From Trichocoleus desertorum ATA4-8-CV12 (lineage in GTDB: Bacteria; Cyanobacteriota; Cyanobacteriia; FACHB-46), in assembly GCA_019358975.1 (NCBI GenBank), contig JAHHIL010000039.1, positions 1 through 53,288 of the forward strand: a DNA stretch of 53,288 nucleotides, given 5' to 3'. A model generated the notes under the pieces. The model had not been told where the DNA came from. It made no database searches and worked only from the letters and a program-made list of their open reading frames with translations. Position 1 is the first letter of the stretch, and every line of letters begins with the position of its first letter. The position numbers and the translations under genes are program-made. Positions 28,757 to 48,520 of this stretch are shown here, piece after piece.

Positions 28757-30288
28757 GATGTCAACTCATCGGATTTCAATTAATCAGTGAAGTGCCGAGA
28801 CTGGCGTAGGCATTGTCATTGTGCCGTTCGGGTTTCCAACTAATCCGATTTTGGTTAATCGGTAAAGCCGCTTCCAAGTGCGAAGTCACAGTTGTTTGCG
28901 AACCTCTAGAGTTTCCAACTAATCCGATTTTGGTTAATCGGTAAAGCTTTGGTCAGCTATGCGAGAGCCTTGAGAATGAGGACTTCAAGTTTCCAACTAA
29001 TCCGATTTTGGTTAATCGGTAAAGGATCAGTCAATCACCGCAGCGGAGTTCATCAAATTGCCAGAGGTTTCCAACTAATCCGATTTTAGTTAATCGGTAA
29101 AGTCCATTGCAGAATTGAGTGGAAAGATTGCCGAGGCAATGGTAAGTTTCCAACTAATCCGATTTTGTTAATCGGTAAAGAAAGAGTTCTTCAGCATGAC
29201 TTCGTGGGGGCAAATTAAGTTTCCAACTAATCCGATTTTGGTTAATCGGTAAAGCTGTGCGCTGAGGGTGATTTAGCGGCAATCAATCAAGCGGTCAAGT
29301 TTCCAACTAATCCGATTTTGGTTAATCGGTAAAGTCGGTTTTAAGTACAGAACATTAGATGAAACCAAAAGAAGTTTCCAACTAATCCGATTTTGGTTAA
29401 TCGGTAAAGCAAGATGGTTAAGCGAAACCGGGCTGAAGCTAATGCGGGTTTCCAACTAATCCGATTTTGGTTAATCGGTAAAGCTCTGGGCCCAATAAAC
29501 TACCTCCCAACACGCAAGTTATTATCTCCCTGGGTTTCCAACTAATCCGATTTTGGTTAATCGGTAAAGCAGTACATTGCCAATGGGAGTATTGGAGCAA
29601 TCTTAAGTTTCCAACTAATCCGATTTTGGTTAATCGGTAAAGCAGCGATCGCCTCAAAGATCAACAACAAAGCGAAATATACCAGTTCCGGAGGTTATTT
29701 GTCAGTCACGTTTCCAACTAATCCGATTTTGGTTAATCGGTAAAGACTGTTGAGGGAGTAATTGATGAGTTTAATCCTCAAAGAATGTTTCCAACTAATC
29801 CGATTTTGGTTAATCGGTAAAGCTGTTGAACTGTGATGTGGCGGCATTTGGATTGTGTATCGTTTCCAACTAATCCGATTTTGGTTAATCGGTAAAGTTT
29901 AGCGCTATATCGGATGCATACTGATGTGCGTCACAAGTTTCCAACTAATCCGATTTTGGTTAATCGGTAAAGACTGTTGAAAAGAAAAGAGCTCGAAAAC
30001 AATCTGATAATTGCAGAGTTTCCAACTAATCCGATTTTGGTTAATCGGTAAAGCTGAGGTTACAATTGTATTTGTTGATTGTTAGACTTGCAGGTTTCCA
30101 ACTAATCCGATTTTGGTTAATCGGTAAAGGAGAACTTCGATGAAGAAACCTACAAGGACTACGCAGCAATCTTCTGTTTCCAACTAATCCGATTTTGGTT
30201 AATCGGTAAAGCCAAGCAAATATTGTAATGACCTGGGAAAGCTTTATGAGCAGTTTCCAACTAATCCGATTTTGGTTAATCGGTAAAG
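28757..30288 (-). CRISPR. CRISPR array 1: 19 repeats plus one degenerate terminal repeat
   Basis: The 36-bp repeat reads on the plus strand GTTTCCAACTAAT, then stem CCGATT, loop TTGGTT, stem AATCGG, then TAAAG. Perfect or near-perfect copies start at 28832, 28911, 28989, 29067 (one G-to-A), 29146 (one base short), 29219, 29299, 29374, 29448, 29534, 29607, 29710, 29787, 29862, 29937, 30018, 30094, 30176 and 30253. A decayed copy at 28757-28792 matches 26 of 36 bases and closes the left end. Spacers are mostly 37-50 bp; one is 67 bp. On the minus strand the repeat ends TTGGAAAC, like known 5' tags, so crRNA is read leftward and the newest spacers are at the right. Confidence 0.98.
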
Positions 30289-30559
30289 ACACCCTCTAGG
30301 AAGTCTGACTCAGACCTTCTTTCAGGCTGCAAAACTCCACAATAGGAATTTTGGCTTGTAGGCAGTCTAGCACAGCCTCGCTTGCAGAGGCTAGAAGCCT
30401 TGCTATACAAGGACTCTCCACAATAGAACGGCAGAATGCAAGTTTCAGCGCTTGAGTCTATTGTGGAGGTAACGAGAGTTCTTGTTAGATGATCCACCAT
30501 ACCGCTGAGGCTTTTCTATATGACAAATTACTAATGCTCAAAGCCCAAGAAGTAGCTTT
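30289..30559 (-). promoter_or_regulatory. Leader of CRISPR array 1
   Basis: This non-coding stretch lies between the newest repeat and the csx3-AAA stop. It shares blocks with the leader of array 2 at similar distance from the repeat: 17 of 21 bases around AGAATGC...TTCAGC at 30429-30449, and TAGCACAGC near 30369. It also contains CTCCACAATAG three times: direct at 30335 and 30416, inverted at 30457-30468, the last two forming a 12-bp inverted repeat. It should hold the array promoter and integration signals. Confidence 0.7.
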
Positions 30560-31495
30560 TTAAGCTGGTAGTGTCCTAGATTGATTAGCTAAACAGTAAG
30601 TTTGCACTGCTTCTAAAACAATATTTGGCATCTGTAACGCCTCTTCCGAAGTCCAAGGGCCTGCAATGATTTCTAGAAATGGTTTGGTGGTTAGTACCTG
30701 ACAGTCTCGTGGTTCCAGCACACTATGGATCACCGCTAGAGGCTGGAGATGGGTTTGGCACAAGTCATGCCATTCCTGCACGAGTTCAGGCTTTTTACTA
30801 ATGATGATGTAGTGCGTGCATTGCTCCACCAAAGGCAGTTTCTCCGGCTGCACCTTGCCCCCCACATCAACCAATACTAGATTGAGCAACTGCCGTAAGT
30901 TAGCGGTCGCCCGTGTGTGATAGTGAAAATATTCCGGTACGAGTTCAGCCGCATTTTTATGCTCATGAATGCGCCGCTCATGCTCTGCAATTAACCGCTT
31001 GGCAAAATCTCGATCGCGAGATTCGTGACTCCAATTACCCTCTCCATCCCAGTTAGCACGTTGCAAAAATATCTGCTGTTCAGGCCACTTCTGGGTCAGA
31101 CTTTGACGTAGGGCATTTGAGAAGATACTCTTACCACTTTCCGGCGGGCCACCAATTAGAATTGCAGGACGAGTGGGGCGCTGCAACGTGATGGAAATCA
31201 AATCACCGATCGCCCGTTCTGGCACTTGGCTATGAACCACGATCGCACCTCCTTCTGGGGCAGAGAAGCAAGCGATCCACGGGGCTACACGGCAATGATC
31301 CACTAAAACGCCATAGAGCCAAGTAGGCATTTGCCCAAACAAAACCACCTCTCGCTCTAGATCTAAATCAGCGGGTAGCTCAATCTCAGCGATCGCCTCT
31401 GGCTTAATCTGCTGGTTGGGAGGGATAGAAGTGATCTCTAGAACTTGGTAGTTCGCCGCTAAGGTTTTGAGGTGAATCAGGGGGTGAGTATCCAT
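30560..31495 (-). CDS. csx3: Csx3-AAA fusion (CRISPR ring nuclease-like domain plus P-loop NTPase)
   Basis: 311 residues. Residues 1-105 form a Csx3-like domain (VVLFGQMPTWLYGVLVDHC, then PWIACFSAPEGGAIVVHSQ). A P-loop NTPase follows, with Walker A GGPPESGKS at 115-123 and a Walker-B-like LNLVLVDVGG. Csx3/Crn3 degrades the second messenger cA4 in type III systems. By alignment with the adjacent standalone Csx3, the His, Asp and Arg of the active site are replaced here by Arg69, Ser78 and Pro80. The domain may therefore bind without cutting, with the ATPase as output. It is co-oriented with standalone csx3, 29 bp downstream. Confidence 0.85.
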   Translation of the reverse strand: MDTHPLIHLKTLAANYQVLEITSIPPNQQIKPEAIAEIELPADLDLEREVVLFGQMPTWLYGVLVDHCRVAPWIACFSAPEGGAIVVHSQVPERAIGDLISITLQRPTRPAILIGGPPESGKSIFSNALRQSLTQKWPEQQIFLQRANWDGEGNWSHESRDRDFAKRLIAEHERRIHEHKNAAELVPEYFHYHTRATANLRQLLNLVLVDVGGKVQPEKLPLVEQCTHYIIISKKPELVQEWHDLCQTHLQPLAVIHSVLEPRDCQVLTTKPFLEIIAGPWTSEEALQMPNIVLEAVQTYCLANQSRTLPA

Positions 31496-31524
31496 TGCAA
31501 CTTTTCAATCCGCTCCGCAGACCA

Positions 31525-31890
31525 CTACTTGCGAAAAATAGACTCAGGTAAATTGATGGGGAGAACTTGTCCAACTTGAACTGCCCGTGAATGTGCCTCT
31601 ACTACAACTGCACCACCCGATCGCGATGTGGCTGCACCTAAACGCGGGTCAAAACAAGCCACCCAAGCTGCTGCGTGACAAGCATGTACCAAAAAGCCAT
31701 AAACCCAAATGGGTGCTCTCCCTTCAATCACAACTCCTTGACTACCCACAAAATCATCTGGCAGGCTTACCCCCTGTAAATCTTGCGGTTCCACTAAGCC
31801 ATCTGGTGTCGTGATGTTGATGTGCAGAAGCTGGTAAGCAAGGCCAGTTTCGGTCTGCTGAGGGATCAGTTGTAGTTCTAGAGGTTTCAT
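31525..31890 (-). CDS. csx3: Standalone Csx3 ring nuclease (Crn3)
   Basis: 121 residues forming a single Csx3 domain: VVIEGRAPIWVYGFLVHACH, then AAWVACFDPRLG and GGAVVVEAHS. His72, Asp81 and Arg83 match in spacing the His/Asp/Arg reported for A. fulgidus Csx3. It is therefore predicted to hydrolyse cA4 and shut down the type III response. A short insert (AATSRS) sits before GGAVVV. It is the first gene of a two-gene unit with csx3-AAA and diverges from the TIGR03985 regulator (115 bp between). Confidence 0.85.
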   Translation of the reverse strand: MKPLELQLIPQQTETGLAYQLLHINITTPDGLVEPQDLQGVSLPDDFVGSQGVVIEGRAPIWVYGFLVHACHAAAWVACFDPRLGAATSRSGGAVVVEAHSRAVQVGQVLPINLPESIFRK

Positions 31891-32005: not shown

Positions 32006-32833
32006 ATGCCTGATTTGATTTGGCGCGATCCGCCTAGCCTGCCACTCTTGCAATGGTTAGCACGGGGTTCGCTGAAACAAAATTTGGCTCAGGCTGTACG
32101 TCTGTGGGTTTGGCTGCATCTGCTGTATGGCCCTGATCACATTCGCCTCAGTTTACCCAATCCTTTCACTTACCCGGACTGGCGTGATGCTTTCTTTAGA
32201 ACTGATCATCCCAAGGGAGACGAAAAACCTGAGTTACACGATCACCTGTGTCCTTGCGCCAAAACTACCGATGCCTGGTTATTTGGCGATCGCCTCACCT
32301 TAACTCAACCCAATTGGGAAGCTTGGCTAAGCCATCCTGATCATTGCCAATTATTAGAGCAGCGATCGCGTCAGTTTAAGCAAGCTCTCCAACAACATGA
32401 AGCTTTACCTCCACAGCTCCAGAAGTTTCTACATCAAACTCGCTTATTTGCTGTTACCCGCCGCACCCTCTTTGCGGATCTACAAGTCCTAACCAAGATT
32501 CATTGGCTAAAACGACGGGGCCAGAACTATTACCGAGTGAATGAATGGCCTGTACGTCCTGCACCCGCGATCGCTAAAGAGCATGAGTCTTACTTAAAAG
32601 CCTATGACTTGGAATTCCTAACCCAACCGGATTTGGCAGCGATCGCAGATAACTTTGCCTTGGTGCAGGGAGAGAGACGCTTTTTTGTGCATGTGGAGTA
32701 TGTGATTCCGCCAAACAAGCTCGATCAGGTGGATATCTGGCAAGAGCAATTGCGAGATCACTGGCAGCAGCTTCCGGTCAAGCCTGTCTTGTTGTCTTAT
32801 CAAGGGCAGGACAAACCGATGTCGTTTCTGTAG
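32006..32833 (+). CDS. CRISPR-associated TIGR03985-like protein, N-terminal part
   Basis: 275 residues. It contains a helical N-terminus, LYGPDHIRLSLPNPFTY, a Cys-containing LHDHLCPCAK segment, a winged-helix-like stretch (TRRTLFADLQVLTKIHWLKR) and FFVHVEYVIPP. To my knowledge TIGR03985 proteins occur only beside cyanobacterial CRISPR loci. Together with the next ORF it makes one full-length family member of about 475 residues. Its TAG at 32831-32833 overlaps the GTG of the next frame by one base. The next frame remains open upstream and reads naturally across this point. I therefore think a single frameshift near 32780-32830 splits one gene, but two coupled genes cannot be excluded. Confidence 0.7.
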   Translation: MPDLIWRDPPSLPLLQWLARGSLKQNLAQAVRLWVWLHLLYGPDHIRLSLPNPFTYPDWRDAFFRTDHPKGDEKPELHDHLCPCAKTTDAWLFGDRLTLTQPNWEAWLSHPDHCQLLEQRSRQFKQALQQHEALPPQLQKFLHQTRLFAVTRRTLFADLQVLTKIHWLKRRGQNYYRVNEWPVRPAPAIAKEHESYLKAYDLEFLTQPDLAAIADNFALVQGERRFFVHVEYVIPPNKLDQVDIWQEQLRDHWQQLPVKPVLLSYQGQDKPMSFL

Positions 32834-33435
32834 TGGTGTATCCGGTTTGCGTCTACTACTACCAACGCGGGCCTTATCTCTGTGCCTTTGGGCAAGTTCC
32901 TAGCGGCAAGGGAGGAGATATGGATTGGCGCAACTACCGCTTAGACCGAATTCTGGCGATCGCATCTCTGGAGTGGGGAGATCCGCGAGTACCGACAAAG
33001 CTCTACCAACAGTACCAGCAACGCACGCTCCCCACATCTGAGAGTATCCAGGTCAATATGTCTGATGCTTGGGGATTTGACTACTATCAACCAGCTCAAC
33101 TACTTTTGCTGCGCTTTGATCGAGAGTGGGATCAGCGCTATATCCAAGGAACTTTACGACATGCCACCTTTGAGCCAGTGGATTATCAAGAGGTAGGAAC
33201 ATTGATTCGGCAAACGCTGAAGGGGCAACCACAAAAAGCCTTGCTAAAACTCTGGCGATCGCGCTCTCGGGAGGATGCTTACTATCAGGCCCAGTATCGG
33301 CAAGATGACCCGAATGTGCGGCAACGGTTGCGAGCTTGGCGACCGCGAGTGGAGGTTTTCTTGCCTTGGAATTTACGCCAACGGATGACTCAGGAAGTGG
33401 AGCGGGAGTGGCATCTATATCATGACGAGCTTTGA
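32833..33435 (+). CDS. CRISPR-associated TIGR03985-like protein, C-terminal WYL-like part
   Basis: 200 residues starting VVYPVCVYYYQRGPYLCAFG. The YYYQRGPYLCAFGQ...WRNYRLDRI pattern resembles a WYL ligand-binding domain, as in transcription regulators of CRISPR and other defence loci. The C-terminus (WRPRVEVFLPWNLRQRM) is typical of WYL-like tails. It overlaps the HD gene by 14 bp, so translation is probably coupled. Regulation of csx3, the array or the HD gene in response to a bound nucleotide is an inference. See the preceding entry for the frame break. Confidence 0.7.
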   Translation: MVYPVCVYYYQRGPYLCAFGQVPSGKGGDMDWRNYRLDRILAIASLEWGDPRVPTKLYQQYQQRTLPTSESIQVNMSDAWGFDYYQPAQLLLLRFDREWDQRYIQGTLRHATFEPVDYQEVGTLIRQTLKGQPQKALLKLWRSRSREDAYYQAQYRQDDPNVRQRLRAWRPRVEVFLPWNLRQRMTQEVEREWHLYHDEL

Positions 33436-34054
33436 GCAGACGATCCTGACCTCTCGCTTTGAGGCTGCCTTGGTCTATGCGGTGCAGCTCCACGCTCAGC
33501 AGCGGCGCAAGGTTACAGGTACGCCTTATGTGGCCCATCTCCTGAGTGTGGCTGCTTTGGTATTAGAGGATGGGGGCACTGAAGATGAGGCGATCGCGGC
33601 GCTGCTGCATGATGCGGTGGAAGACCAAGGTGGAGCCACAACACGGGCAGAGATTTCGCGGCGATTTGGGGCGGCAGTGGTAGAGATTGTCGATGGGTGT
33701 ACAGAGCCAGATTTACAGTCAGGGCAGGGATGGCAAGAACATAAGTTGCAATATCTGGAGCAGATACGGCAGGCTGATCCAGCGGTACGGCGGGTGGCGT
33801 TGGCGGATAAGTTGCACAATGCGCGATCGCTGCTGGTGAATTTTCGGCTGGAGGGAGACGGAATCTGGAGCCAGTTTCAGGGTGGTAAGGCAGGGGTGCT
33901 TTGGTTGGCTGAGAGGCAAGTGGAGCTGTTTCGGCAAGTGAGCTACAGTGGAATGGTGACGGAACTGGAGCAGGTGGTGCAAGCGTTGGCGTGGCAGGTT
34001 GGAGTTGCCGCAACTAGCCCGGAACTGGAAGAGGATATTTCCATCGGGGATTAG
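33422..34054 (+). CDS. HD-domain hydrolase of RelA/SpoT (MESH1) type
   Basis: 210 residues. HD motifs are complete: TPYVAHLLSV (His39), ALLHDAVEDQ (His63-Asp64) and VALADKLHNAR with the second Asp. This is the single-domain ppGpp-hydrolase layout; no synthetase domain is present. It starts inside the last codons of the TIGR03985 C-terminal part, so the two are one operon. Known relatives remove the pyrophosphate of ppGpp. Whether this one acts on ppGpp or another alarmone or oligonucleotide in the CRISPR setting is unknown. No HIP1-poor signature marks it as foreign relative to its neighbours. Confidence 0.8.
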   Translation: MTSFEQTILTSRFEAALVYAVQLHAQQRRKVTGTPYVAHLLSVAALVLEDGGTEDEAIAALLHDAVEDQGGATTRAEISRRFGAAVVEIVDGCTEPDLQSGQGWQEHKLQYLEQIRQADPAVRRVALADKLHNARSLLVNFRLEGDGIWSQFQGGKAGVLWLAERQVELFRQVSYSGMVTELEQVVQALAWQVGVAATSPELEEDISIGD

Positions 34055-34497: not shown

Positions 34498-34557
34498 CAA
34501 ATCGGTGCAGTCCAAGATGGATGATATTGCTGGGCTGGGTGGCGCTATAGAAATGGC

Positions 34558-37500
34558 GTTTCCAACTAATCCGATTTTGGTTAATCGGTAAAGAGCAAGA
34601 ACTAAATCTGTCTTACTCTGGCTACTCAATTGCCTATATGTACTGGTTTCCAACTAATCCGATTTTGGTTAATCGGTAAAGCGGATTAAGTTTGAAACAC
34701 TCTTTCCCTTAGTCGCAGTCGTTTCCAACTAATCCGATTTTGGTTAATCGGTAAAGCTGGCGCAACAGCAAAAGTTCGAACTGTAGAAATCAACTCGTTT
34801 CCAACTAATCCGATTTTGGTTAATCGGTAAAGGCCTTGTTCTTGAAAAACTTTTTGAGCAGAAAGCTGACAAGTTTCCAACTAATCCGATTTTGGTTAAT
34901 CGGTAAAGAGCGCAAAATGAGGAAGAGTGGCTCATTGAGTATAATAGTTTCCAACTAATCCGATTTTGGTTAATCGGTAAAGATCTAAGAGCATGTGTGG
35001 TGCAAATATGTACTAAATGTTTGAAAGTTTCCAACTAATCCGATTTTGGTTAATCGGTAAAGGTGACCGAAAAAGGCTTCGGCCTTTGGGTATACTCCCA
35101 AGAGTTTCCAACTAATCCGATTTTGGTTAATCGGTAAAGTGTGGATCTTAAGGATTTGAGCGATCGCGTCCCTCTAGTTCGTGGCGTTTCCAACTAATCC
35201 GATTTTGGTTAATCGGTAAAGCCTACCTTGGTATAAGTGTCTGATTGAGCAGGCGATCGGAGGTTTCCAACTAATCCGATTTTGGTTAATCGGTAAAGTC
35301 TGTCGCAGCTGGCTCAGGAAACGGCTACTTGAATACTTGTTTCCAACTAATCCGATTTTGGTTAATCGGTAAAGATTTCAAAGGGGGTAATGAATTCCAT
35401 CATGCAATGTGTCAAGGTTTCCAACTAATCCGATTTTGGTTAATCGGTAAAGGAGGGGAAAGTCAGAGCAGCCCTAGTCCTGAGGCAACTGGGCGAAAAC
35501 AAGTTTCCAACTAATCCGATTTTGGTTAATCGGTAAAGTACAACTTAGGGGTAAGTCCAAGTAGAAATGATAATTCTATAGTTTCCAACTAATCCGATTT
35601 TGGTTAATCGGTAAAGAAAACAGTAGATAGTGTTAAACGGGATATCCTTAGTGCTATGTTTCCAACTAATCCGATTTTGGTTAATCGGTAAAGGATAAGC
35701 AGTTCAAGGAATTACAACCTTCTGACTTAGAGTTTCCAACTAATCCGATTTTGGTTAATCGGTAAAGCTTGAAGCTGGAAACACATATAAAATCCAGAAT
35801 GAAGTTTCCAACTAATCCGATTTTGGTTAATCGGTAAAGTCAATGTCCGACGTATTCCATGAGTCGGTGCCTTTTGAGTGTTTCCAACTAATCCGATTTT
35901 GGTTAATCGATAAAGAAGTGGCCGTCTCTGCAATGTAGTTGATAAAACTGTTCTGGAAGTTTCCAACTAATCCGATTTTGGTTAATCGGTAAAGATTCAC
36001 GGGAGAATTATTTTAACACCTTTGAGATTGCAAGAGAAAGTTTCCAACTAATCCGATTTTGGTTAATCGGTAAAGGTGCAACTCAAAAAGAAAAGTTTGA
36101 TAAAGCGTTTTATCCAAGTTCCAACTAATCCGATTTTGGTTAATCGGTAAAGGATCAGCCTAAGACAGAAAACATTATTTTAGATAGGAAGTTTCCAACT
36201 AATCCGATTTTGGTTAATCGGTAAAGGACAATTGGATTTCTTGGTTTATCGGCAATCTTAATGTTTCCAACTAATCCGATTTTGGTTAATCGGTAAAGGT
36301 TGGACTTACCGTCGGTGACTCTAGCTGTAATGACGGATTTCTTTAGTTTCCAACTAATCCGATTTTGGTTAATCGGTAAAGCTAATAGTCTGGAAGAAAG
36401 CGTAAAGAGTCTAAGCTATAAAAGTTTCCAACTAATCCGATTTTGGTTAATCGGTAAAGAATTGAAAAATCGTGAAGACTGGCCAGTTGATTTAATAAGG
36501 TTTCCAACTAATCCGATTTTGGTTAATCGGTAAAGAATTGAAAAAGACCCGATTAGAAATGCATTGAGAAAGGTTTCCAACTAATCCGATTTTGGTTAAT
36601 CGGTAAAGGTCTCGGGTACCGTCCCAATTCAACCGCAAGTTTGCTATTTAAGTTTCCAACTAATCCGATTTTGGTTAATCGGTAAAGAAATGGGTCAGCT
36701 ATGAGCTATCTTTACGAATGTCCAAAGTTTCCAACTAATCCGATTTTGGTTAATCGGTAAAGGCAACGACCAGACGGGGCAGCGTTTCGAGCTACCTGTT
36801 AATGTTTCCAACTAATCCGATTTTGGTTAATCGGTAAAGCAGTTGACGATAGCGACATTGCACCTTGAGTCGCCCCTGCGTTTCCAACTAATCCGATTTT
36901 GGTTAATCGGTAAAGGCAACGACCAGACGGGGCAGCGTTTCGAGCTACCTGTTAATGTTTCCAACTAATCCGATTTTGGTTAATCGGTAAAGCAGTTGAC
37001 GATAGCGACATTGCACCTTGAGTCGCCCCTGCGTTTCCAACTAATCCGATTTTGGTTAATCGGTAAAGCTTGGTACCTTTGGTTTATGTGCCGATGCAGT
37101 AAATGCTCAGTTTCCAACTAATCCGATTTTGGTTAATCGGTAAAGTTGATATGCAGAAGGTTAATCCAAGAGTGTTTGCATTTTGTGTTTCCAACTAATC
37201 CGATTTTGGTTAATCGGTAAAGTCTGGGGCAGCAGCCTTTGTTCCTATTCCTGTGGTTAGTTTCCAACTAATCCGATTTTGGTTAATCGGTAAAGATCCA
37301 CACTTTCCGTTGCTGCTTTACTCTCTACTTCTTTAGTTTCCAACTAATCCGATTTTGGTTAATCGGTAAAGCTGAAATGAGTGGCCCCATTAGTGTCAAC
37401 GTTAACAAGTTTCCAACTAATCCGATTTTGGTTAATCGGTAAAGACTTTTCGTTTACCTTGAATGCAACAGCATATTTGGGTTTCCAACTAATCCGATTT

Positions 37501-38516
37501 TGGTTAATCGGTAAAGATGCTTTTCTAACTTACCTTCTACTCATCTAACAATGTTTCCAACTAATCCGATTTTGGTTAATCGGTAAAGACTATCATGATA
37601 GATCCTGAGTATAGAGGATATAGAGAAAGTTTCCAACTAATCCGATTTTGGTTAATCGGTAAAGCTGAGTTCAATGGGCTTACCACGGAACAGATGAGCA
37701 CCAAGTTTCCAACTAATCCGATTTTGGTTAATCGGTAAAGAGCGTTCAGTTAACGGATGCACAAGCTAGAAATTAAGTGAGTTTCCAACTAATCCGATTT
37801 TGGTTAATCGGTAAAGGTTCTCTCGGTTCTGATTCCAGGCTTAGTGCAAGCGCAAGAGGTTTCCAACTAATCCGATTTTGGTTAATCGGTAAAGGTGGAT
37901 GTCAAAAGTTTAGATGATATCGGTGATATGCCTCTGAGTTTCCAACTAATCCGATTTTGGTTAATCGGTAAAGCTATTCGCGATCGTCGTTGATCCTGTA
38001 ACAGGTCAACCTTCGTTTCCAACTAATCCGATTTTGGTTAATCGGTAAAGATGAGGCACGTATTCCCGCAGACTGGCTCACAAATTATGGCGAGTTTCCA
38101 ACTAATCCGATTTTGGTTAATCGGTAAAGATTACCTTCAACACCAGTAATAGCAAATCAGATCGAGGGTTTCCAACTAATCCGATTTTGGTTAATCGGTA
38201 AAGGTAGGTGGTGCTGTTTCCACGCAAAAGGGTGCTTACTTTGAGTTTCCAACTAATCCGATTTTGGTTAATCGGTAAAGGTTAATAAACGTGTAACTTG
38301 GGAGGGACTCAATCAAGGTTTCCAACTAATCCGATTTTGGTTAATCGGTAAAGAAGATATGAGGAGACAGGAATCCCATCTCTAATATCTATAAAAATAA
38401 AGTTTCCAACTAATCCGATTTTGGTTAATCGGTAAAGCGTTCCTGGCCATCCTGGAATTGCAGCTCTTTATATGAAAAAAGTTTCCAACTAATCCGATTT
38501 TGGTTAATCGGTAAAG
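34558..38516 (-). CRISPR. CRISPR array 2: 52 repeats, 51 spacers
   Basis: It has the same 36-bp repeat as array 1. I counted 52 copies from 34558 to the last at 38481-38516. Variants are 35880 (one G-to-A near the 3' side) and 36118 (one T missing). Spacers are mostly 36-46 bp; the leftmost is 52 bp. By repeat polarity (minus-strand end TTGGAAAC) the precursor runs leftward and the leader is at the right, next to cas2. The left end has an intact repeat with no decayed copy. A two-unit duplication lies at 36763-37068. Confidence 0.98.
36763..37068 (-). repeat. Tandem duplication of two spacer-repeat units in array 2
   Basis: The spacer at 36763-36803 is identical to that at 36916-36956, and the spacer at 36840-36879 to that at 36993-37032. 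The repeats between them share the same order. The period is 153 bp. This is best explained by unequal recombination or slippage between repeats, not by re-acquisition. Confidence 0.95.
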
Positions 38517-38722
38517 ATACCCTTCCAGAAGCCTCACCTGGCATAATTTCCAAGCATCATGGCTTCAGAGGGGGAGTCAGTCTCCAGCCTAGCACAGCTT
38601 GAGACAACACCGTAGCCTTCCTCAGCGTTTCAAACCCTTGCTACAAGAGCCACCCACAGAGGTCAACGACAGAATGCGGGCTTCAGCAACCCAGCGACCT
38701 ATGGAGCGACCTTTAATTTCTA
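38517..38722 (-). promoter_or_regulatory. Leader of CRISPR array 2
   Basis: 206 bp of non-coding DNA between the newest repeat and the cas2 stop. The 21 bases next to the repeat match the array-1 leader at 14 positions. An inner block around 38667-38687 matches at 17 of 21, and TTAGATGAT recurs near the distal end of both. It should contain the promoter and integration-guiding sequences of array 2. The CTCCACAATAG motif of leader 1 is only weakly kept. Confidence 0.7.
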
Positions 38723-38998
38723 TTAGATGATGTAAGCTTGAGGCGGCTCCTGAGGCGGAGAACTACCGATTGTTAAAACCCTAGAAACCGCCTCCTCAGA
38801 AATCCAATAAAACCGCACATTGTCCTCTGTAGACTTAACCCGTCGCCTCACCTTTTCGTGAAGCTGGCGCATTTCATCCAAATTCAAAAAACATTCAAAA
38901 ACAGAATACTGCACCCGCCGACCATACCCTTCTAGGAAAGTAGCTAACTTCACCCGTCGCCGATCATCGGGAACATCATAAACTACCAAAACCAGCAT
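38723..38998 (-). CDS. cas2: Cas2 spacer-acquisition protein
   Basis: 91 residues with the ferredoxin-like Cas2 pattern: MLVLVVYDVPDDRRR with the conserved Asp, VQYSVFECFLNLDEMRQL, and VRFYWISEEA. Cas2 dimerises and bridges Cas1 dimers to hold the prespacer. The start directly follows the RT-Cas1 stop on the minus strand. Length is normal. The gene is the last of the TM-CARF/RT-cas1/cas2 unit and reads into the array-2 leader. Confidence 0.96.
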   Translation of the reverse strand: MLVLVVYDVPDDRRRVKLATFLEGYGRRVQYSVFECFLNLDEMRQLHEKVRRRVKSTEDNVRFYWISEEAVSRVLTIGSSPPQEPPQAYII

Positions 38999-41110: not shown

Positions 41111-42121
41111 CTAGCCCACCAAATCAAAAGCACTATGCTGGTAGTCAATCAGAAATGGTCCAAAAGTTTGTTTAGTAGCAGGGTTAAACGAGACATACTC
41201 CAATTCTCGATGCCTAGGTAAACAAGCCATAATCATCCCCACAGACATTGGCTTAGTGCCACCCGTAAAGTCTGCAATCATGTCAGTCGCGCCATACCTG
41301 CTGCGACGAAAAATTTGATTCACGCAGTCAAACGTATCCTGTGCCTCTGCCGGTGATACCCCAGTGGCATGAATCTCAACCTCAAAATCTCGGTTATATT
41401 GCTGAGCAAGCTGCTCACATTTTTGCTGAATAGTCTTGGCATTCTCACGGCTATTAGGCCCAAACCTTTCCGCTTCCAAGTCATTAGAAGGAATGAGCCA
41501 AACCTTCTCCAGTCTGTTGTGCTGCAAGTGGTACTCAATCGTAAACAAAGCACTTGCAGGATTGCTAACTAGAATAATGAGCCCTTTCTTGCCTTCAGGC
41601 TTCCGTAACCCATCCTGAATAATTCCTGCCTTCGTTAAAGGGCGACGTAACCCATGCCATGCACTAATTACCAAAACCACTGCAAATGGAATCAAGAACA
41701 TTATCAGTGCGGGCAAGTAATCTTCTACCGTTGGTGGCTTTTCCCCAATCCTGAACCAGTAACGGGCCACTTGCTGAATTAGTATTGCTGCGTTATCAAA
41801 CCACCAGCCTGCAATCCCAATTCCAATAAACGTCCAGAAGGGCAATCCCAGTAAGCGAAAGATCCGCCCAAATTGTAGGCGTGATAGAACTGCCTGAATT
41901 AGAGCAAGAATAAATCTTCTGACCTGACCTAGCGTTATTTCCTGAGTGAGCCATTGCTCCATAGCTATCGCGATCGCACTAATTTTTTGAGCCAGCCGTT
42001 GTCTCAAAGGCGATTTCTGAATTCGTTGAGCGATCGCCTGAGCTTTACTCGTTAATCGTTTCATTAAAGCTAAATTTTGGGCTCGTTGAGCGATCGACCG
42101 ACCAGTAAAGCGACGTTTCAT
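41111..42121 (-). CDS. Transmembrane CARF-domain protein, putative cOA-gated membrane effector
   Basis: 336 residues. Residues 1-85 are basic and Gln/Ala-rich, probably amphipathic. Hydrophobic helices lie at about 89-109 and 136-156. The cytosolic C-terminal half is a CARF domain: GLIILVSNPASALFTI, VWLIPSNDLEAE, SRENAKTI and DFTGGTK at 284-290. CARF domains bind cyclic oligoadenylate made by Cas10. No nuclease domain is present, so the output is expected at the membrane, as for Cam1, a shorter one-helix CARF protein. It is the first gene of the RT-cas1/cas2 unit and diverges from cas10, a position that fits co-control. Confidence 0.8.
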   Translation of the reverse strand: MKRRFTGRSIAQRAQNLALMKRLTSKAQAIAQRIQKSPLRQRLAQKISAIAIAMEQWLTQEITLGQVRRFILALIQAVLSRLQFGRIFRLLGLPFWTFIGIGIAGWWFDNAAILIQQVARYWFRIGEKPPTVEDYLPALIMFLIPFAVVLVISAWHGLRRPLTKAGIIQDGLRKPEGKKGLIILVSNPASALFTIEYHLQHNRLEKVWLIPSNDLEAERFGPNSRENAKTIQQKCEQLAQQYNRDFEVEIHATGVSPAEAQDTFDCVNQIFRRSRYGATDMIADFTGGTKPMSVGMIMACLPRHRELEYVSFNPATKQTFGPFLIDYQHSAFDLVG

Positions 42122-42401: not shown

Positions 42402-44201
42402 ATGACAGATACTGACAACACGGTCTACACCGCCATCACCTTTGCTCCAGTCCAAGGCTTCATCGAAAAATCTCGCAAGTTGCGAGACTTATATGGCAGT
42501 TCCTATTTACTTTCACTGCTAGCGCAATCCATTTGCGTTGCGGTTGGAGAGGCTAATGTTGTATCACCTGCTTTGCCCAACATCACGCAGGGAATGCCGA
42601 ATCAAATCATCGTTCGAGGGCAAGTTTCACAAGTAGATGCCGAAAAATTGTTTTTCGACACTTGGAGTTGTATTACTGACACGTGTCGTCAATGGATTGA
42701 AGACAATGTGCAAGGTAATTGGCAGTACTCCTGGGATCGAGATTGGGGCCTATGGGCCAAATATGCTTGGGAGTTTTTTCATGTTGTAGGCAAACCGGGT
42801 GAAAGCATCACGCAGGTGCGACAGCGGTTGAATGAAAAGAAGCGATCGCGTGCCTGGATTGGAGTTAACTGGCAGGGCGAAAGCTCCACACTGTCAGGAA
42901 CTGATGCTGTTGCCTGGGCAGAACTGGGTAAGATTGCTAAGCCTCATGAACAGACTGTTCCCTGGGAAAAAGATCGCAGCGGCAAAAGCCCTGTTGAGCA
43001 CTTCTATGTAGAACTGAGTTGCCAACTAGGCGCAGCTTTCATAAAAAAAACGCCAGAACTAGCTCAGATATATCACAACAATCCCCAGAGGTTTTTAGAA
43101 AAGAGTATCGAGTATGGCGAAGCATTCATTGATCCCGATGAAGAACTCAGCATTCCTGAACTTATAAAGCGTTTAATTACTCACAAAGCAATTGTCGAAC
43201 AGTTAATTGAGCGCATGGGATCGTTGTACTACCTTACTGAGTTGAAAAAGCAAATTGAAAAGGATTTAAATCCTAAGCGTTTTACAGATCTCAACCGTCT
43301 CCAGCACAAATCTAGCAATAAGCCTCAATACTGGACAGGCTGGTTTCAAGGTGATGGAGACGGAGCGAGTGATTATCTCAAGTGGTTAGGTGAGCAGGGT
43401 AGCCAGCAAGAAGACAGAGGCACTACAGCATTTAGTACACAAATGCGGTGCTGGGGGCAGGAGTTTAAAGAGAATGCAACCAGGTATCTCCCCAATGATC
43501 AAAGCCGTTTGATTTATGCAGGAGGGGATGACTTTTTGGGCGTCCTCTACCAAACGGATGCTCAGTTACCAGCCAAAGACTGTCTAGATTGGTTCTCAAC
43601 GTTCAAGTCTGGAATTTGGGAGGGCATCAATCCCACTCAACCTGAAAAACAAATTACTGCCAGTGTTGGCTTTGTCTGGGTGTCACCCAAAGTGCCACAA
43701 CGAGATGTACTACAGCACTGCCGTGAAGCGGAAAAATCCGCCAAACATAACGGTAAAGACCGAATTGCCTTTCGTATTGTTTTTAGCGGTGGTAACTATC
43801 TGGAATGGGTTTGTCCCTGGCGTATTCTAGAGGACGGTTTGTTCAGACAATACCGCGATCGAAACGGCATGCAAGGTGAGAAGGCCAATTGGACTCATTT
43901 CTATAACGATGTTGCTGTGCTGGAGTCTCGTCACTCCTTTGGTTCTCAAGGTGAAGAGCATTTTGAGACTGCTGAAGCGCTCTTCAAAATCTATTTTGGT
44001 GATGCTAACAGCCTTTTACACAAAAACAACTGGTGGAACCAGACGAATGATCATAACAGAGTCATTCACGCAGGAGTTTTGGGCGACGAAAAAAACTTTA
44101 AGAAGAATGGTGCTCTAGACCCCAAGCGAGTGACTAAATCACTCAACAACTGGGTCATTAACCTTGCGAAAGTAGGATTTCATCTATGTTCCAACACCTG
44201 A
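42402..44201 (+). CDS. cas10: Cas10/Cmr2, type III-B, HD-less
   Basis: 599 residues, short for Cas10. The N-terminus starts directly with the palm-like FAPVQGFIEKSRKLRDLYGSS, so the HD nuclease domain is missing. A glycine-rich palm motif GDGDG lies at 317-321, and the catalytic AGGDDFLG (GGDD at 374-377) is intact. Helical domain D4 follows (VLQHCREAEKSAKHNGKDRI). The family makes cyclic oligoadenylates from ATP when the complex binds target RNA. Loss of HD means no ssDNA cleavage. The stop overlaps the cmr3 start by 16 bp. Confidence 0.93.
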   Translation: MTDTDNTVYTAITFAPVQGFIEKSRKLRDLYGSSYLLSLLAQSICVAVGEANVVSPALPNITQGMPNQIIVRGQVSQVDAEKLFFDTWSCITDTCRQWIEDNVQGNWQYSWDRDWGLWAKYAWEFFHVVGKPGESITQVRQRLNEKKRSRAWIGVNWQGESSTLSGTDAVAWAELGKIAKPHEQTVPWEKDRSGKSPVEHFYVELSCQLGAAFIKKTPELAQIYHNNPQRFLEKSIEYGEAFIDPDEELSIPELIKRLITHKAIVEQLIERMGSLYYLTELKKQIEKDLNPKRFTDLNRLQHKSSNKPQYWTGWFQGDGDGASDYLKWLGEQGSQQEDRGTTAFSTQMRCWGQEFKENATRYLPNDQSRLIYAGGDDFLGVLYQTDAQLPAKDCLDWFSTFKSGIWEGINPTQPEKQITASVGFVWVSPKVPQRDVLQHCREAEKSAKHNGKDRIAFRIVFSGGNYLEWVCPWRILEDGLFRQYRDRNGMQGEKANWTHFYNDVAVLESRHSFGSQGEEHFETAEALFKIYFGDANSLLHKNNWWNQTNDHNRVIHAGVLGDEKNFKKNGALDPKRVTKSLNNWVINLAKVGFHLCSNT

Positions 44202-45280
44202 TTGTGATTGAGCCTCTGGGTCTACTTTATGGCAGTTCCGGGCGTTTTCTGTCACCCGAGAACTTGGTAGGGCGATCGGGCGCTAGCTTTCCGCCTAGTG
44301 CGGCAACTGTATCAGGTTTGTTTGCTGCCTATCATGCCCAGACAACAAAAGACTCGAAAACACTGAAAGAAACGCTCAAGCCCTTACAACTGGCTGGACC
44401 GTTTTGGGCAGACAGCAATACTCCAGAAAATTTTCATGTTCCTACACCATTGCACTGCCTAGTCAAGGATCAGCGCATTCGATGCTGTATGGCTTGGCAA
44501 CAAGGGCAGTGGCTTACCTGGTCAGACGAAAAACGCCAATGGGAGACTCCACCAAACGACAAATTTGAGAAGGGAACCTGGGTAGCGATCGCAGACTGGC
44601 ATAAACTACAGCACCCAACAACAGCAAAGGAAGTTGAAGTACAGCTCGCGCCGTGGAAGTTTTTGCCTCATCTGCATCCTCATTTAATGGAAGATGAACG
44701 CCGAGTAGACAGTGATAAAGAACGCGGCAGTTTATTTCTTGAAAATGGCGTACAGATGAACCCTGATGCCTGTCTGATTTACCTCTCAAATATGCCACTA
44801 AAAGAGGGTTGGTATCGATTTGGTGGAGAGGGTCATATGGTAAACCTACGATGCATAGAAATACAAGCAGACTACATTATTAGCCAGTTACTACAAGCCC
44901 CCTTGAAACAAAGCTTTGCCCTCATTACTCCTGCCATCTGGGGATCAAACCGTCTCTCCTATCGTGAACCCGGTATTCAACGAAGTAACGGCTGGGAACC
45001 TCTTTGGAATGCAGTGTTATTGACCGAGCGGGCAATGCCCTTCCGTTACCGCTTGGGAGGTAAAGAAAGAACAAAGCTTCTATCACGTGGTCGCTATGCT
45101 GTCCCTGCCGGAACTGTCTACATCACCGAACACCCCCAACCTGCTTGGGTGGATTGGAGTGAGGATTGGTTTCCTAAAGAAGGTCCATCTCTCAAGCGGT
45201 GGGGCTGTGGTTTAGCTTTACCCTTACCGGGAGCGATCGCTGAGCCTACTGCTGAAACCCAAGGAGCGATCGCTTCCTAG
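44186..45280 (+). CDS. cmr3: Cmr3, type III-B RAMP protein
   Basis: 364 residues. The start IVIEPLGLLYGSSGRFL, FPPSAATVSGLFAAYHAQ and the C-terminal WGCGLALPLPGAIAEP are the typical Cmr3 (Cas5-like) pattern. Cmr3 holds the crRNA 5' tag at the base of the complex, next to Cas10. It overlaps cas10 by 16 bp and is followed by cmr4 after about 40 bp. The last residues (AETQGAIAS) are non-conserved. Confidence 0.9.
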   Translation: MFQHLIVIEPLGLLYGSSGRFLSPENLVGRSGASFPPSAATVSGLFAAYHAQTTKDSKTLKETLKPLQLAGPFWADSNTPENFHVPTPLHCLVKDQRIRCCMAWQQGQWLTWSDEKRQWETPPNDKFEKGTWVAIADWHKLQHPTTAKEVEVQLAPWKFLPHLHPHLMEDERRVDSDKERGSLFLENGVQMNPDACLIYLSNMPLKEGWYRFGGEGHMVNLRCIEIQADYIISQLLQAPLKQSFALITPAIWGSNRLSYREPGIQRSNGWEPLWNAVLLTERAMPFRYRLGGKERTKLLSRGRYAVPAGTVYITEHPQPAWVDWSEDWFPKEGPSLKRWGCGLALPLPGAIAEPTAETQGAIAS

Positions 45281-45318
45281 TCTTTTTTCTTAGTCAGTGC
45301 AAGCTTAAACAGAAAACC

Positions 45319-46353
45319 ATGTATCACAAAGCCTACGGCATCATCGAGACCCTGGCTCCACTTCATGTAGGAGCCAGCGCTGGAGAAGAAACTGGAAACC
45401 TCAATCTCATATTCCGCGACCAATTTACCCAAACAGGTATCATTCCTGGAAGTTCCATTCGAGGCCGCTTCCGAGCCGACATGCGACAAAAACGGCAGTG
45501 GTGGCTTGAAAAACAGTTAAAAGAGAAGCAGATAGTAATTCCTAATTCGAGAGTGCAGACCGTAGAGGTTGGAGAGGGAGAGAAGAAAAAGACCCTTTCG
45601 CGGTTGGAATGGCTAGAATTGCAGGCTAAAGAGCAAAAAATCACTGTCCCAGACTTGATCAATGAAAATTACTGGTACGGTCACTCCTCGGTTGCTGGGC
45701 AAACTGATGGTGGCACAACGGAAGCTCTTGTGAAGTTTGAATACGCCTCTCTAGTGTGGTTGCCAGTGTTTTGTCCTGGTCAGCCCATCGTATGGGTTAG
45801 CTGTCCGCGTTTACTAAAACGGTACCAACAGATTACAGATATTTCCTATCCAATACCCAAACCAGTGGATGGGCAATATCCAGTGAAACTCAACAACCAT
45901 CGCAATCGCCTCTTCTTCAACCTTGGGTTTCTAGACAATTTGAAGAGTACACCAGAGCTTAGTGCTTGGGTACCCCTTAACTCCCGTGTTAAGCCCGAAA
46001 ACCTAGTAGTTGTGGACGACAGTGATATTGCAACAATTCATGATATGGCGCTGTATCGACAAACACGGACGAAGTTAGAAGATGGAGCAAAGAAAGTGGA
46101 GAACTTCTTTGGATTCGAAGCATTGCCTGAAGATAGCATTTTGGTGTTTCCAATCGCAATTCGCCAGAGTGTTTCCAAAGTAGACATCGAGAACAAAATA
46201 GCTTGGAAACCGTTTAAGGAAACTACTACAGATTTGTACTTGGGCGGGCTGGAATCCATTGGCTGTGGGCGAACTTCAGTCATGCTATCAGGTGAGTATT
46301 TCACCGCTACATCAGGCTCAAACTATTCACAGTCGCAATCAATAGGAGCGTGA
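45319..46353 (+). CDS. cmr4: Cmr4, type III-B RAMP backbone subunit
   Basis: 344 residues. The Cas7-type fold is seen in HVGASAGEETGNLN, RDQFTQTGIIPGSSIRGRFR, and the C-terminal LGGLESIGCGRTSV. Cmr4 polymerises along the crRNA and normally cuts target RNA every six bases. Using the RD/PGSS anchor, the catalytic Asp of Csm3/Cmr4 falls on Leu28, between Asn27 and Asn29. RNase activity may therefore be lost unless Glu23/24 substitutes. Its stop overlaps the GTG upstream of the small-subunit gene. Confidence 0.88.
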   Translation: MYHKAYGIIETLAPLHVGASAGEETGNLNLIFRDQFTQTGIIPGSSIRGRFRADMRQKRQWWLEKQLKEKQIVIPNSRVQTVEVGEGEKKKTLSRLEWLELQAKEQKITVPDLINENYWYGHSSVAGQTDGGTTEALVKFEYASLVWLPVFCPGQPIVWVSCPRLLKRYQQITDISYPIPKPVDGQYPVKLNNHRNRLFFNLGFLDNLKSTPELSAWVPLNSRVKPENLVVVDDSDIATIHDMALYRQTRTKLEDGAKKVENFFGFEALPEDSILVFPIAIRQSVSKVDIENKIAWKPFKETTTDLYLGGLESIGCGRTSVMLSGEYFTATSGSNYSQSQSIGA

Positions 46354-46355
46354 AG

Positions 46356-46781
46356 ATGGCTTGGAATCCTTACGGTTTAGATCAAGTTGCCCATCGGTTA
46401 GTGCAACGTGCTCTACAAATTGATGCAGATCCGGAGATCGCAGGTGACTCTTGCTTGAGAGAAGTGTACGAAATGCGAGAATCAGTGGCTTATGGATTGG
46501 AGCGATTTTGGGGTGAGCAGCTACGGCACTACAACAAAAAACAAGACAAGAATGCTACATATTGGCAGGAAACCTGGAGAAAACTGGTCTCCATATTAGA
46601 CGGAGCTGGAGTTGTGCTACCCAATGATGAAAATGCAAACATAATGGCTCAAAAACTGTGGGGCGATATTCCATTGAATGAGACGGGAGTGAGACTTAGT
46701 CATGAAAATCGTCAAGTTGCTCTAGCTGTACTAACGCAACTGTGCGATTGCATGGTGTGGTGGACTCAGCGATACAAGTAA
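46356..46781 (+). CDS. Putative small subunit (Cmr5/Cas11-like) of the III-B complex
   Basis: 141 residues from ATG 46356 (MAWNPYGLDQVAHRLV). An AGGAG 7 bases upstream favours this start over the GTG at 46350. The sequence is almost wholly helical, with EMRESVAYGLERFWGEQ and ENRQVALAVLTQLCDCMVWW. It has no catalytic pattern. Size, fold class and place between cmr4 and the large RAMP gene fit Cmr5. I do not see a direct Cmr5 signature, so this rests mainly on context. Confidence 0.6.
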   Translation: MAWNPYGLDQVAHRLVQRALQIDADPEIAGDSCLREVYEMRESVAYGLERFWGEQLRHYNKKQDKNATYWQETWRKLVSILDGAGVVLPNDENANIMAQKLWGDIPLNETGVRLSHENRQVALAVLTQLCDCMVWWTQRYK

Positions 46782-46813
46782 TCAGGCTGAGAAAATATCG
46801 TTGAGGGATAATA

Positions 46814-48520
46814 ATGTCAAATGCAGATGATGTACCAATGATGTTCCGTGCTTCTGTGAGCGGACGTTGTCAACTTCAATATATCGATGGTAATCGTAAT
46901 CGCGACACTGAAAGCGACATTGAACGCTGGGTGTCGGAATGGACAATAGCAGAACTACCTTCTCAGCCACCCACTTTAAGCCAGCACCAGTCAGACGATA
47001 CTTGTTTCTCGTTTCAGACTATTCCCTATTGCATTACATGGCGATTTGTCTCCAATAGCGGGGCTGATCCAACGATTATTCTGCCTGTGATCGGCGCTAG
47101 AGGGTTTCCTTACTATCCTGGCAGCAGCATGAAAGGGGCATTCCGACAAGCATGTAATAAAATTTTTCCCGATCGTGTTGTCTATTACTGTGGTGATCGA
47201 GACAGCATATCTCCTGGCATTTTGCGTTTCCATGGAGGATATCCTACCAGCAATACTTGGAAGAACAATTTAATTGACTTGGCTCATCCACAGCAAGGGT
47301 GGCAGGTTAAGAATTTAGATACTCGTCAGAAAGATGGGGGGGCATTCGTTCAAATTTCTTTGCATCAACCAGAGCTGAAATTTGGTATTTCTAGTGCAAT
47401 TGACTTAATAGGAGCCGAGTGGCAGGACATTTGGCAAGTTTGGAGAGTGGCCCTCTCAAACGGGATTGGCTGTCGTGTATCCGCTGGGTATGGCAAGTCA
47501 ACAGAGCGGGCTGAATCGCCTCTTTACAAGGTAACTCTCAACGGACAGGGAGTAGCATCTACGCTGTTAGACAGTACGCCAGAATTTCGTCCCAATATTT
47601 TTCGAGCGGCATTAAGAGGTCATGCACTCAGGATTTTTGGAGGGTTGAGTGATGAGGACACGGCTGAATCCTTGGTAAAACAACTATTTGGAGGAATTCA
47701 TAACGGAACAGATTGGGGGTTGCTAAGTATAGGATTTCGGGAAACTAAACCTTTTAGGTGGGAAAAGTATGGCCGATATGAAATGCCATATTACGAAGTC
47801 AAGGGAGAATTGTCTTGGCTACTGACGCAATCTGTTGAAGATGAGAAGGAAAAAGCGTTAAAGAGTCTTGTCAACCACCTAATGCAGTTTTCGATGTTAT
47901 TAGGTGGATTCGGCAGGAGCTGGAGACGAGTTGATCACCGCAAGTTTTATCCTGACGAACAATATGAGAAGCTGATTGGCTGTCATTGGACATGGCAGAA
48001 ATCTCTTTTTTTAAGTAATGATCCAGATGATCAACTACAGGCAGTTGGACAGGTAATCGATCGTGTTCTAAATGTTGCACAGAGCTGGATGCAACGATGT
48101 CAGTTAGAGCTAGTTCACGATCATCCAGCTAAATGGCGTGAAGCATGGTGCCGCGATCGCGCACAAGTTTGGGGGAGGGTAGCAGATGACGAGGGGGATA
48201 GCCTCGCCATAAAGTGGTTTCATCAAGGTTATGATGAGGTGCTCCGGGGGAGAAAGTTTGTTCCCACAAAGCAGCTTAAGGGAACGGCTGTAGCAGGATT
48301 TACTGGAAATCAAGATAATCCGACTCGGATTGGAAGGTTATGGCATCGAATGTATCCTGTAACAGAAAGAATAGTGAGAGCCGATGGTAGACAAGGTTTC
48401 AGACAAGCGGATCAATACCTTGAACTACTAACATTTTTTCCAGATACCAAAGGTGAGGATTCTAAGCAGTTGACTGAATATCTTAACCGTCCAAAAAGCC
48501 CTTTTACTCGTCTTTGGTGA
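46814..48520 (+). CDS. Multi-RAMP protein (Cmr6-like N-terminus plus further RAMP domain)
   Basis: 568 residues. The first RAMP domain has GFPYYPGSSMKGAFRQA (GSSMKG at 103-108) and a glycine-rich loop GIGCRVSAGYGKS near 222-234, which fits Cmr6. A second domain from about 262 has EFRPNIFRAALRGHALRIFGG and LFGGIHNGTDWG, resembling Cmr1-type or Cas7-like RAMPs. Locally no separate cmr1 or cmr6 exists, so this one chain may supply both. It follows the small-subunit gene by about 30 bp. Its last codon bases overlap the next small ORF in a GTGA junction. Confidence 0.78.
   Translation: MSNADDVPMMFRASVSGRCQLQYIDGNRNRDTESDIERWVSEWTIAELPSQPPTLSQHQSDDTCFSFQTIPYCITWRFVSNSGADPTIILPVIGARGFPYYPGSSMKGAFRQACNKIFPDRVVYYCGDRDSISPGILRFHGGYPTSNTWKNNLIDLAHPQQGWQVKNLDTRQKDGGAFVQISLHQPELKFGISSAIDLIGAEWQDIWQVWRVALSNGIGCRVSAGYGKSTERAESPLYKVTLNGQGVASTLLDSTPEFRPNIFRAALRGHALRIFGGLSDEDTAESLVKQLFGGIHNGTDWGLLSIGFRETKPFRWEKYGRYEMPYYEVKGELSWLLTQSVEDEKEKALKSLVNHLMQFSMLLGGFGRSWRRVDHRKFYPDEQYEKLIGCHWTWQKSLFLSNDPDDQLQAVGQVIDRVLNVAQSWMQRCQLELVHDHPAKWREAWCRDRAQVWGRVADDEGDSLAIKWFHQGYDEVLRGRKFVPTKQLKGTAVAGFTGNQDNPTRIGRLWHRMYPVTERIVRADGRQGFRQADQYLELLTFFPDTKGEDSKQLTEYLNRPKSPFTRLW

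What the first reader, a model, noticed from the sequence alone, without database searches (positions are those of the whole stretch)
30560..31890. Tandem Csx3 paralogues with split roles: catalytic residues kept in one, lost in the AAA fusion
Aligned through the shared Y-G-x-L-V and W-x-A-C-F anchors, the standalone Csx3 has His72, Asp81 and Arg83. The fusion has Arg69, Ser78 and Pro80. The spacing in the standalone form matches the known Crn3 active site as I recall it. The fusion may be a cOA sensor that drives an ATPase, with the other as the eraser.
Basis: partly seen in the sequence, partly recalled or inferred. Interest (0 to 1): 0.75.

Follow-up and report, generated by a model that had tools for sequence, protein, structure and literature searches.

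The report
Dead ring-nuclease NTPase beside live one
Next to a CRISPR immune system in a cyanobacterium, one gene encodes an intact enzyme that would erase the alarm molecule cA4, and its neighbour encodes a copy of that enzyme that has lost its catalytic and cA4-contacting residues but is attached to a well-preserved ATP-binding domain; the same pairing recurs in dozens of cyanobacteria, which points to a dedicated two-protein device rather than a duplicate.

Summary
The standalone Csx3 (31525-31890, -) has H72/D81/R83, plus H69 and H100, and so carries all five catalytic residues of AfCsx3/Crn3. The fusion (30560-31495, -) has R69/S78/P80, and also D66 and Q90.

The split is a conserved family trait. 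Of 38 non-redundant standalone-then-fusion pairs, none keeps the full H57/H60/H80 face in the fusion, against 48 of 53 lone fusions. Standalone partners keep all five residues in 35 of 38. A second, diverged group shows the same loss (complete face in 1 of 12 paired fusions). dN/dS of the dead domain is 0.11, so it is not a relic.

In paired fusions the cA4-contact positions are lost too: S44 became F/Y/W in 35 of 38, R46 is kept in 4 of 38, and D69+R71 in 12 of 38 (not in the window). A cA4 sensor in the known mode is therefore unlikely. The "AAA" domain models as a MinD/ParA-type (SIMIBI) P-loop NTPase.

Best reading: a catalytically dead Csx3 domain that docks the NTPase onto the live Crn3. 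Docking is inferred, not shown. Verdict: real, under-described new variant of a known kind.

The parts
31525..31890 (-). Standalone Csx3/Crn3 (121 aa) with all five catalytic residues: H69, H72, D81, R83, H100 (AfCsx3 H57, H60, D69, R71, H80)
   Evidence: PF09620 2.8e-29, TIGR02579 91.7 bits (cut-off 55.4); residues; the five are invariant in 21 aligned standalones
30560..31495 (-). Fusion protein (311 aa): catalytically dead Csx3 domain plus P-loop NTPase
   Evidence: AF2 model pLDDT 86.2, pTM 0.84
31175..31495 (-). Dead Csx3 domain of the fusion (aa 1-107): D66, R69, S78, P80/E81, Q90 at the catalytic positions, F53 and Q55 at cA4-contact positions
   Evidence: fold matches AfCsx3 6yud Z 15.2, 1.7 A over 99 aa; dN/dS 0.11 against congener
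30563..31174 (-). P-loop NTPase domain (aa 108-311): GGPPESGKS Walker A, RANWDGEGN, LVDVGG, CTHYIIIS, IHS motifs
   Evidence: motifs conserved in paired and lone fusions; fold closest to MinD/ParF/NifH, Z up to 13.6
32006..33435 (+). Divergently transcribed WYL-type regulator (TIGR03985), here split into two frames at 32831-32835
   Evidence: WYL is beside csx3(-NTPase) in most loci
33422..34054 (+). Small HD-domain protein related to the RelA/SpoT hydrolase domain; often next to the WYL gene
   Evidence: PF13328 1.4e-25; neighbourhoods
42402..44201 (+). Cas10/Cmr2 of the type III-B system: cyclase GGDD at aa 374, no HD motif in the first 250 aa; the only Cas10 found in the genome
41111..42121 (-). 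CARF protein with predicted transmembrane N-terminus; candidate cOA effector
   Evidence: PADLOC 'CARF, 2 TMs' 2.7e-25; only Csx1/Csm6-type CARF match in the genome
38999..41107 (-). RT-Cas1 fusion (Cas2 at 38723-38998)
44186..48520 (+). Further subunits of the type III-B effector complex (ORFs 44186-45280, 45319-46353, 46350-46781, 46814-48520)
   Evidence: ORFs; relatives lie beside Cas10 in other csx3 loci; subunit names not tested
34557..38530 (.). CRISPR array (about 52 repeats)
28831..30309 (.). Second CRISPR array with the same repeat, downstream of the fusion gene

Best explanation
A two-subunit ring-nuclease module made from a duplicated Csx3 domain. SHOWN: one subunit is a complete Crn3 by sequence; the other has lost the H57/H60/H80 metal and catalytic face and, in this lineage, the cA4-contact face too, yet keeps the predicted Csx3 fold, evolves under purifying selection and carries a fully conserved P-loop NTPase. 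INFERRED: the standalone is the cA4 eraser. The dead domain no longer handles cA4 itself but acts as a docking or pseudo-enzyme subunit that pairs or stacks with the live Crn3, so that the MinD/ParA-like NTPase is recruited to Crn3 and either reports the cA4 state of the pair to a downstream target or adjusts Crn3 assembly and activity.
For: Residue tally over 38 pairs and 53 lone fusions. Genomes G486 and G452 each carry a lone intact fusion and a pair with a dead fusion. Gene order is standalone then fusion with short or overlapping junctions, seven of them 4-bp overlaps. The dead domain has dN/dS 0.11, 0.17, 0.11 and 0.27 in four close comparisons. NTPase motifs are conserved in both classes. 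Both Csx3 copies are found in one ORF in G008 and Crocosphaera and in group-2 relatives, which suggests physical association. L139 carries a paired-clade NTPase fused directly to an intact Csx3 whose domain groups with paired standalones. Loss of the catalytic face recurs in diverged group 2. AfCsx3 is a dimer that stacks head to tail around cA4 (PMC7371418).
Against: No interaction, binding or activity has been measured, and no complex was modelled. In the two group-1 one-ORF forms (L033, L177) neither Csx3 domain keeps the catalytic histidines, so those proteins cannot be an eraser plus a dock. Some lone standalones live without any NTPase partner. L130 and L182 keep H57 and H60 (but not H80), and L119 (group 2) has both copies intact, so the loss is not universal. 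Whether the dead domain meets Crn3 as a heterodimer or as stacked dimers is unknown.
Confidence: 0.5

Rival explanations
1. One reading: the fusion's Csx3 domain still binds cA4 without cutting it and switches on the attached NTPase, while the standalone erases the signal.
For: Cat1, a TIR effector glued into filaments by cA4, has a cA4-binding domain that matches the fusion's Csx3 domain (Z 11.6, 2.1 A, 97 aa) and shows no detectable ring-nuclease activity (PMC12162218), so such a fold can sense without erasing. 12 of 38 paired fusions keep D69+R71.
Against: In the window all cA4 side-chain contacts named for AfCsx3 (S44, R46, R71, H80) are replaced; position 44 is aromatic in 35 of 38 paired fusions and R46 is kept in 4 of 38.
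Confidence: 0.15
2. Shared half-sites: the fusion supplies the D69 face and the standalone the H60 face of a composite active site, so both are needed for, or limit, cA4 cleavage.
For: AfCsx3 H60A and D69A mutants complement each other when mixed (PMC7371418). Group-2 paired fusions keep D69 and K71 in 12 of 12 while losing H57 and/or H60 in 11 of 12. Some group-1 pairs (L034, L085, L090) keep D69+R71.
Against: The window protein lost the D69 face as well (S78, P80/E81), as did most group-1 pairs; its standalone has both faces and should need no helper.
Confidence: 0.12
3. Relic: the Csx3 domain of the fusion is a decaying leftover and only the NTPase matters.
For: All catalytic residues are gone; position-specific freedom at 57, 60, 69 and 71.
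Against: dN/dS about 0.11 in the window lineage, equal to the NTPase domain; fold and G45/P48/W50 core conserved; retained in all paired fusions.
Confidence: 0.06
4. The dead Csx3-NTPase is a new effector or switch acting on something other than cA4 turnover (membrane, nucleoid or the CARF-TM protein), with Crn3 as its anchor and timer.
For: MinD/ParA-like fold; NTPase conserved even in one-ORF forms where both Csx3 domains are degenerate.
Against: No target, no amphipathic or DNA-binding element identified; fold alone shows no function.
Confidence: 0.17

Closest known systems
Crn3/Csx3 ring nuclease (AfCsx3; PF09620, TIGR02579)
   Same: The standalone has the family match, type III-B setting and all five catalytic residues; the fusion's N-domain has the fold.
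   Different: The fusion lacks H57, H60, D69, R71 and H80, although H57, H60 and H80 were described as absolutely conserved in the family (PMC7371418).
Csx3-AAA / Csx3' (PADLOC PDLC01045; Slr7080-type proteins)
   Same: Same domain order, Csx3 then P-loop NTPase (235 bits to the PADLOC model).
   Different: Described fusions are treated as putative ring nucleases with an AAA or kinase domain. Here the Csx3 domain is dead, it is paired with a live Crn3, and the NTPase fold is MinD/ParA-like. I found no report of the pair in the papers searched.
Cat1 (CRISPR-associated TIR effector)
   Same: Its cA4-binding domain matches the Csx3 fold; non-hydrolysing use of such a domain next to an effector domain.
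   Different: TIR instead of NTPase; binds cA4, for which the window's domain lacks the Csx3 contacts.
MinD/ParA/NifH-type SIMIBI P-loop NTPases
   Same: Best structural matches of the C-domain in both groups (Z 13.6 and 15.1).
   Different: Only about 8-17% identity; lacks the deviant Walker A lysine of MinD/ParA (reads GGPPxSGKS).

Membership tests
Crn3/Csx3 ring nuclease: standalone protein | Family profile match and five catalytic residues | tested here: met
   PF09620 2.8e-29, TIGR02579 91.7 bits; H69, H72, D81, R83, H100
Crn3/Csx3 ring nuclease: standalone protein | Mn-dependent cA4 cleavage | not testable with these tools
   needs assay
Crn3/Csx3 ring nuclease: fusion protein | Csx3 fold / profile | tested here: met
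   PF09620 2e-19; 6yud Z 15.2, 1.7 A, 99 aa
Crn3/Csx3 ring nuclease: fusion protein | H57/H60/H80 catalytic-metal face | tested here: not met
   D66, R69, Q90; 0 of 38 paired fusions have the complete face
Crn3/Csx3 ring nuclease: fusion protein | D69/R71 face and cA4 contacts (S44, R46) | tested here: not met
   S78, P80/E81, F53, Q55 in the window protein
AAA+ ATPase (as the fusion is named in databases and papers) | AAA+ fold of the C-terminal domain | tested here: inconclusive
   no AAA+ chain among the 50 listed structural matches; absence from that list is not exclusion; only weak sequence hits
SIMIBI P-loop NTPase | MinD/ParA/NifH-like fold with P-loop | tested here: met
   1ion Z 13.6 (4.1 A, 176 aa) for the window protein; 1g3q Z 15.1 (3.0 A, 165 aa) for group 2
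SIMIBI P-loop NTPase | Nucleotide binding, nucleotide-dependent dimerisation | not testable with these tools
   needs biochemistry
Type III CRISPR accessory module | Linked to a Cas10 with active cyclase motif | tested here: met
   Cas10 GGDD at aa 374, about 11 kb away, only Cas10 in genome

The most novel reading that the evidence does not exclude
A widespread cyanobacterial type III CRISPR device in which a catalytically dead ring-nuclease domain, remodelled into a protein-protein interface, tethers a MinD/ParA-like NTPase to a live Crn3, giving cOA signalling an ATP-driven switch that has not been described.
Probability: 0.35. Interest if true: 0.8.

Novelty: new variant of a known kind. 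Interest (0 to 1): 0.58.

Why it matters
Database annotation calls both genes ring nucleases (the dead fusion passes the TIGR02579 cut-off with 61.6 bits; Allocoleopsis is annotated crn3 twice). If the fusion is not an eraser, annotations that call it one are wrong, and a conserved NTPase of unknown job sits at the off-switch of cOA signalling. The pairs give natural mutants: residues lost together, one-ORF fusions and an apparent revertant (L139). They make the role of the Csx3-linked NTPase, open since it was first noted, directly testable.

Tried and rejected
Chance or misalignment: rejected, the pattern holds in 38 non-redundant pairs by one profile alignment. Random decay whenever a partner exists: not simply so, since paired fusions form a single clade in NTPase and Csx3-domain trees, so most of the loss is old; support is moderate and varies with the tree (0.55-0.99), one broken pair (L181) falls outside the clade, and the trees differ on whether the dead domain is nearer to standalones or to lone fusions. 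Fisher tests ignore this relatedness and are not relied on. IQ-TREE did not finish in time, so FastTree was used. Profile comparison of group-2 fusions with standalones was weak on the Csx3 part, although the NTPase parts are clearly homologous (99.8% probability); the group-2 Csx3 fold therefore rests on PF09620 matches of the small partner, motif alignment and predicted topology. AfCsx3 did not appear in the group-2 structure lists, which are filled by the NTPase domain. L099 (intact fusion upstream of a standalone) counts as lone type because the order is reversed.

Full report
OBSERVATION. Two adjacent genes on the - strand, 31525-31890 and 30560-31495, both encode Csx3 domains, 29 bp apart, and are the only Csx3 domains in the genome. 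Against AfCsx3 the standalone has H69, H72, D81, R83 and H100 for H57, H60, D69, R71 and H80. The fusion has D66, R69, S78, P80 (or E81 if a one-residue insertion is placed earlier) and Q90. In AfCsx3, H60A and D69A are inactive, R71A and H80A strongly reduced, and the active site is built from the D69 face of one dimer and the H60 face of the next (PMC7371418).

SURVEY. PF09620 was searched in 386 cyanobacterial genomes, in one cyanobacterial order (196 genomes, partly overlapping) and in the window's own order; the NTPase profile was searched in the same 386. A further 65 named loci came from the GTDB contig collection, some of them the same genomes. After removing identical NTPase domains there are 38 pairs (standalone directly upstream of fusion), 53 lone fusions and 2 one-ORF doubles. 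H60 is kept in 53/53 lone but 2/38 paired fusions; the full H57/H60/H80 set in 48/53 versus 0/38. D69 is D or E in 53/53 versus D in 17/38. Position 44, a cA4 contact, is S/T/D/N in nearly all lone fusions and F/Y/W in 35/38 paired. R46, another contact, is kept in 52/53 versus 4/38. Standalone partners keep all five residues in 35/38. No conserved replacement catalytic residues appear: the near-invariant columns of paired fusions in this domain look structural (G54, P57, W59, P72, W73 and similar).

EVOLUTION. Paired fusions form one clade in NTPase trees (one broken pair, L181, falls outside) and their Csx3 domains form one clade (0.988), so the loss is mainly ancient. Two genomes, G486 and G452, carry both a lone intact fusion and a pair. 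A diverged second group (small Csx3-like gene followed by Csx3-like-NTPase; includes Synechocystis-plasmid relatives) shows the same trend: 12 pairs, full H face in 1, D69 and K71 in 12; of 5 lone ones, 3 intact. The group-2 H60 assignment needs a one-residue gap and is less certain. The dead domain is under purifying selection: dN/dS 0.108 against the congener, equal to the NTPase domain (0.111); the standalone is 0.039.

STRUCTURE. The AF2 model of the fusion (pLDDT 86.2, pTM 0.84) has an N-domain matching AfCsx3 (6yud Z 15.2, 1.7 A, 99 aa) and a C-domain matching MinD, ParF, NifH, HypB and related SIMIBI NTPases (best 1ion, Z 13.6, 4.1 A, 176 aa). The group-2 model agrees (1g3q Z 15.1, 3.0 A, 165 aa). 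This is a fold resemblance and shows no function. The same N-domain also matches the cA4-binding domain of Cat1 (9mud, Z 11.6, 2.1 A, 97 aa), a cA4-glued filament effector without detectable ring-nuclease activity (PMC12162218). A search of that paper's main text found no mention of Csx3 or Crn3.

CONTEXT. In most loci the csx3 gene or pair is divergent from a WYL regulator (TIGR03985), often with a small HD protein. The window's Cas10 has a cyclase GGDD motif and no HD motif in its first 250 residues. It is the only Cas10 in the genome, and the only Csx1/Csm6-type CARF protein found is the TM-CARF protein at 41111-42121. So cOA signalling is plausible here and Crn3 has something to switch off (inference).

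MECHANISM. I favour a docking or pseudo-enzyme role (0.5): the dead domain meets the live Crn3 and brings the NTPase to it. Support is genetic: constant order, overlapping or near-touching genes, one-ORF fusions, conserved NTPase, selection on the dead domain, and L139, where the paired-type NTPase is joined directly to an intact standalone-type Csx3. The aromatic at position 44 would fit a former ligand pocket turned into a protein contact, but this is inference. Against it: one-ORF forms L033 and L177 lack catalytic histidines in both copies, and nothing biochemical has been measured. A shared half-site model fits group 2 and a minority of group 1, not the window.

NOVELTY. Csx3 fused to a kinase/AAA-like domain is known (PMC7371418, PMC9676260, PMC12409355). 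I found no description of the live/dead pair, of the loss of the supposedly absolutely conserved histidines, or of the MinD/ParA-like fold in the papers searched. Most subscription papers are not held and two key ones could not be read, so prior description cannot be ruled out. The 2025 ring-nuclease census used a 250-aa length limit and so would not have counted the fusions.

Noticed in passing
window 32006-33435: The WYL regulator (TIGR03985) is split into two frames meeting at TAG/GTG 32831-32835, while the same gene is one 500-aa ORF in the congener (L084 7633-9135) and a single ORF in the other loci read; a frameshift mutation or a sequencing error.
   Followed up: partly
window 33422-34054: A small RelA/SpoT-type HD protein is a frequent neighbour of the WYL-csx3 module in cyanobacteria; role unknown.
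   Followed up: partly
PDB 9mud (Cat1) versus window 31175-31495: The cA4-binding domain of the TIR effector Cat1 resembles the Csx3 fold (Z 11.6; sequence profile E 0.0034), which suggests a shared origin of a ring nuclease and a filament sensor.
   Followed up: partly
L081, L080 (Synechocystis-type, group 2); NC_005230.1: Slr7080-like proteins, called putative ring nucleases, belong to the diverged group; the relatives read here lack the H60 and H80 equivalents. The Synechocystis 6803 plasmid copy was matched but its residues were not read.
   Followed up: partly
L139 3947-4927: Filamentous cyanobacterium CCP2: an NTPase of the paired clade fused directly to an intact standalone-type Csx3, apparently a natural return to the single-protein form.
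   Followed up: partly
L033 8648-10024 and L177 3944-5173: Two Csx3 domains plus NTPase in one ORF, with catalytic histidines lost in both Csx3 domains; what such a protein does is unexplained.
   Followed up: no
L130 1807-2868 and L182 2786-3346: Paired fusions that keep H57, H60, D69 and R71 but have R at position 80; either an intermediate or gene conversion from the neighbouring standalone.
   Followed up: no
window 28831-30309 and 34557-38530: Two CRISPR arrays with the same repeat flank the csx3-WYL-HD block, as if the block had been inserted into or had grown between parts of one array.
   Followed up: no
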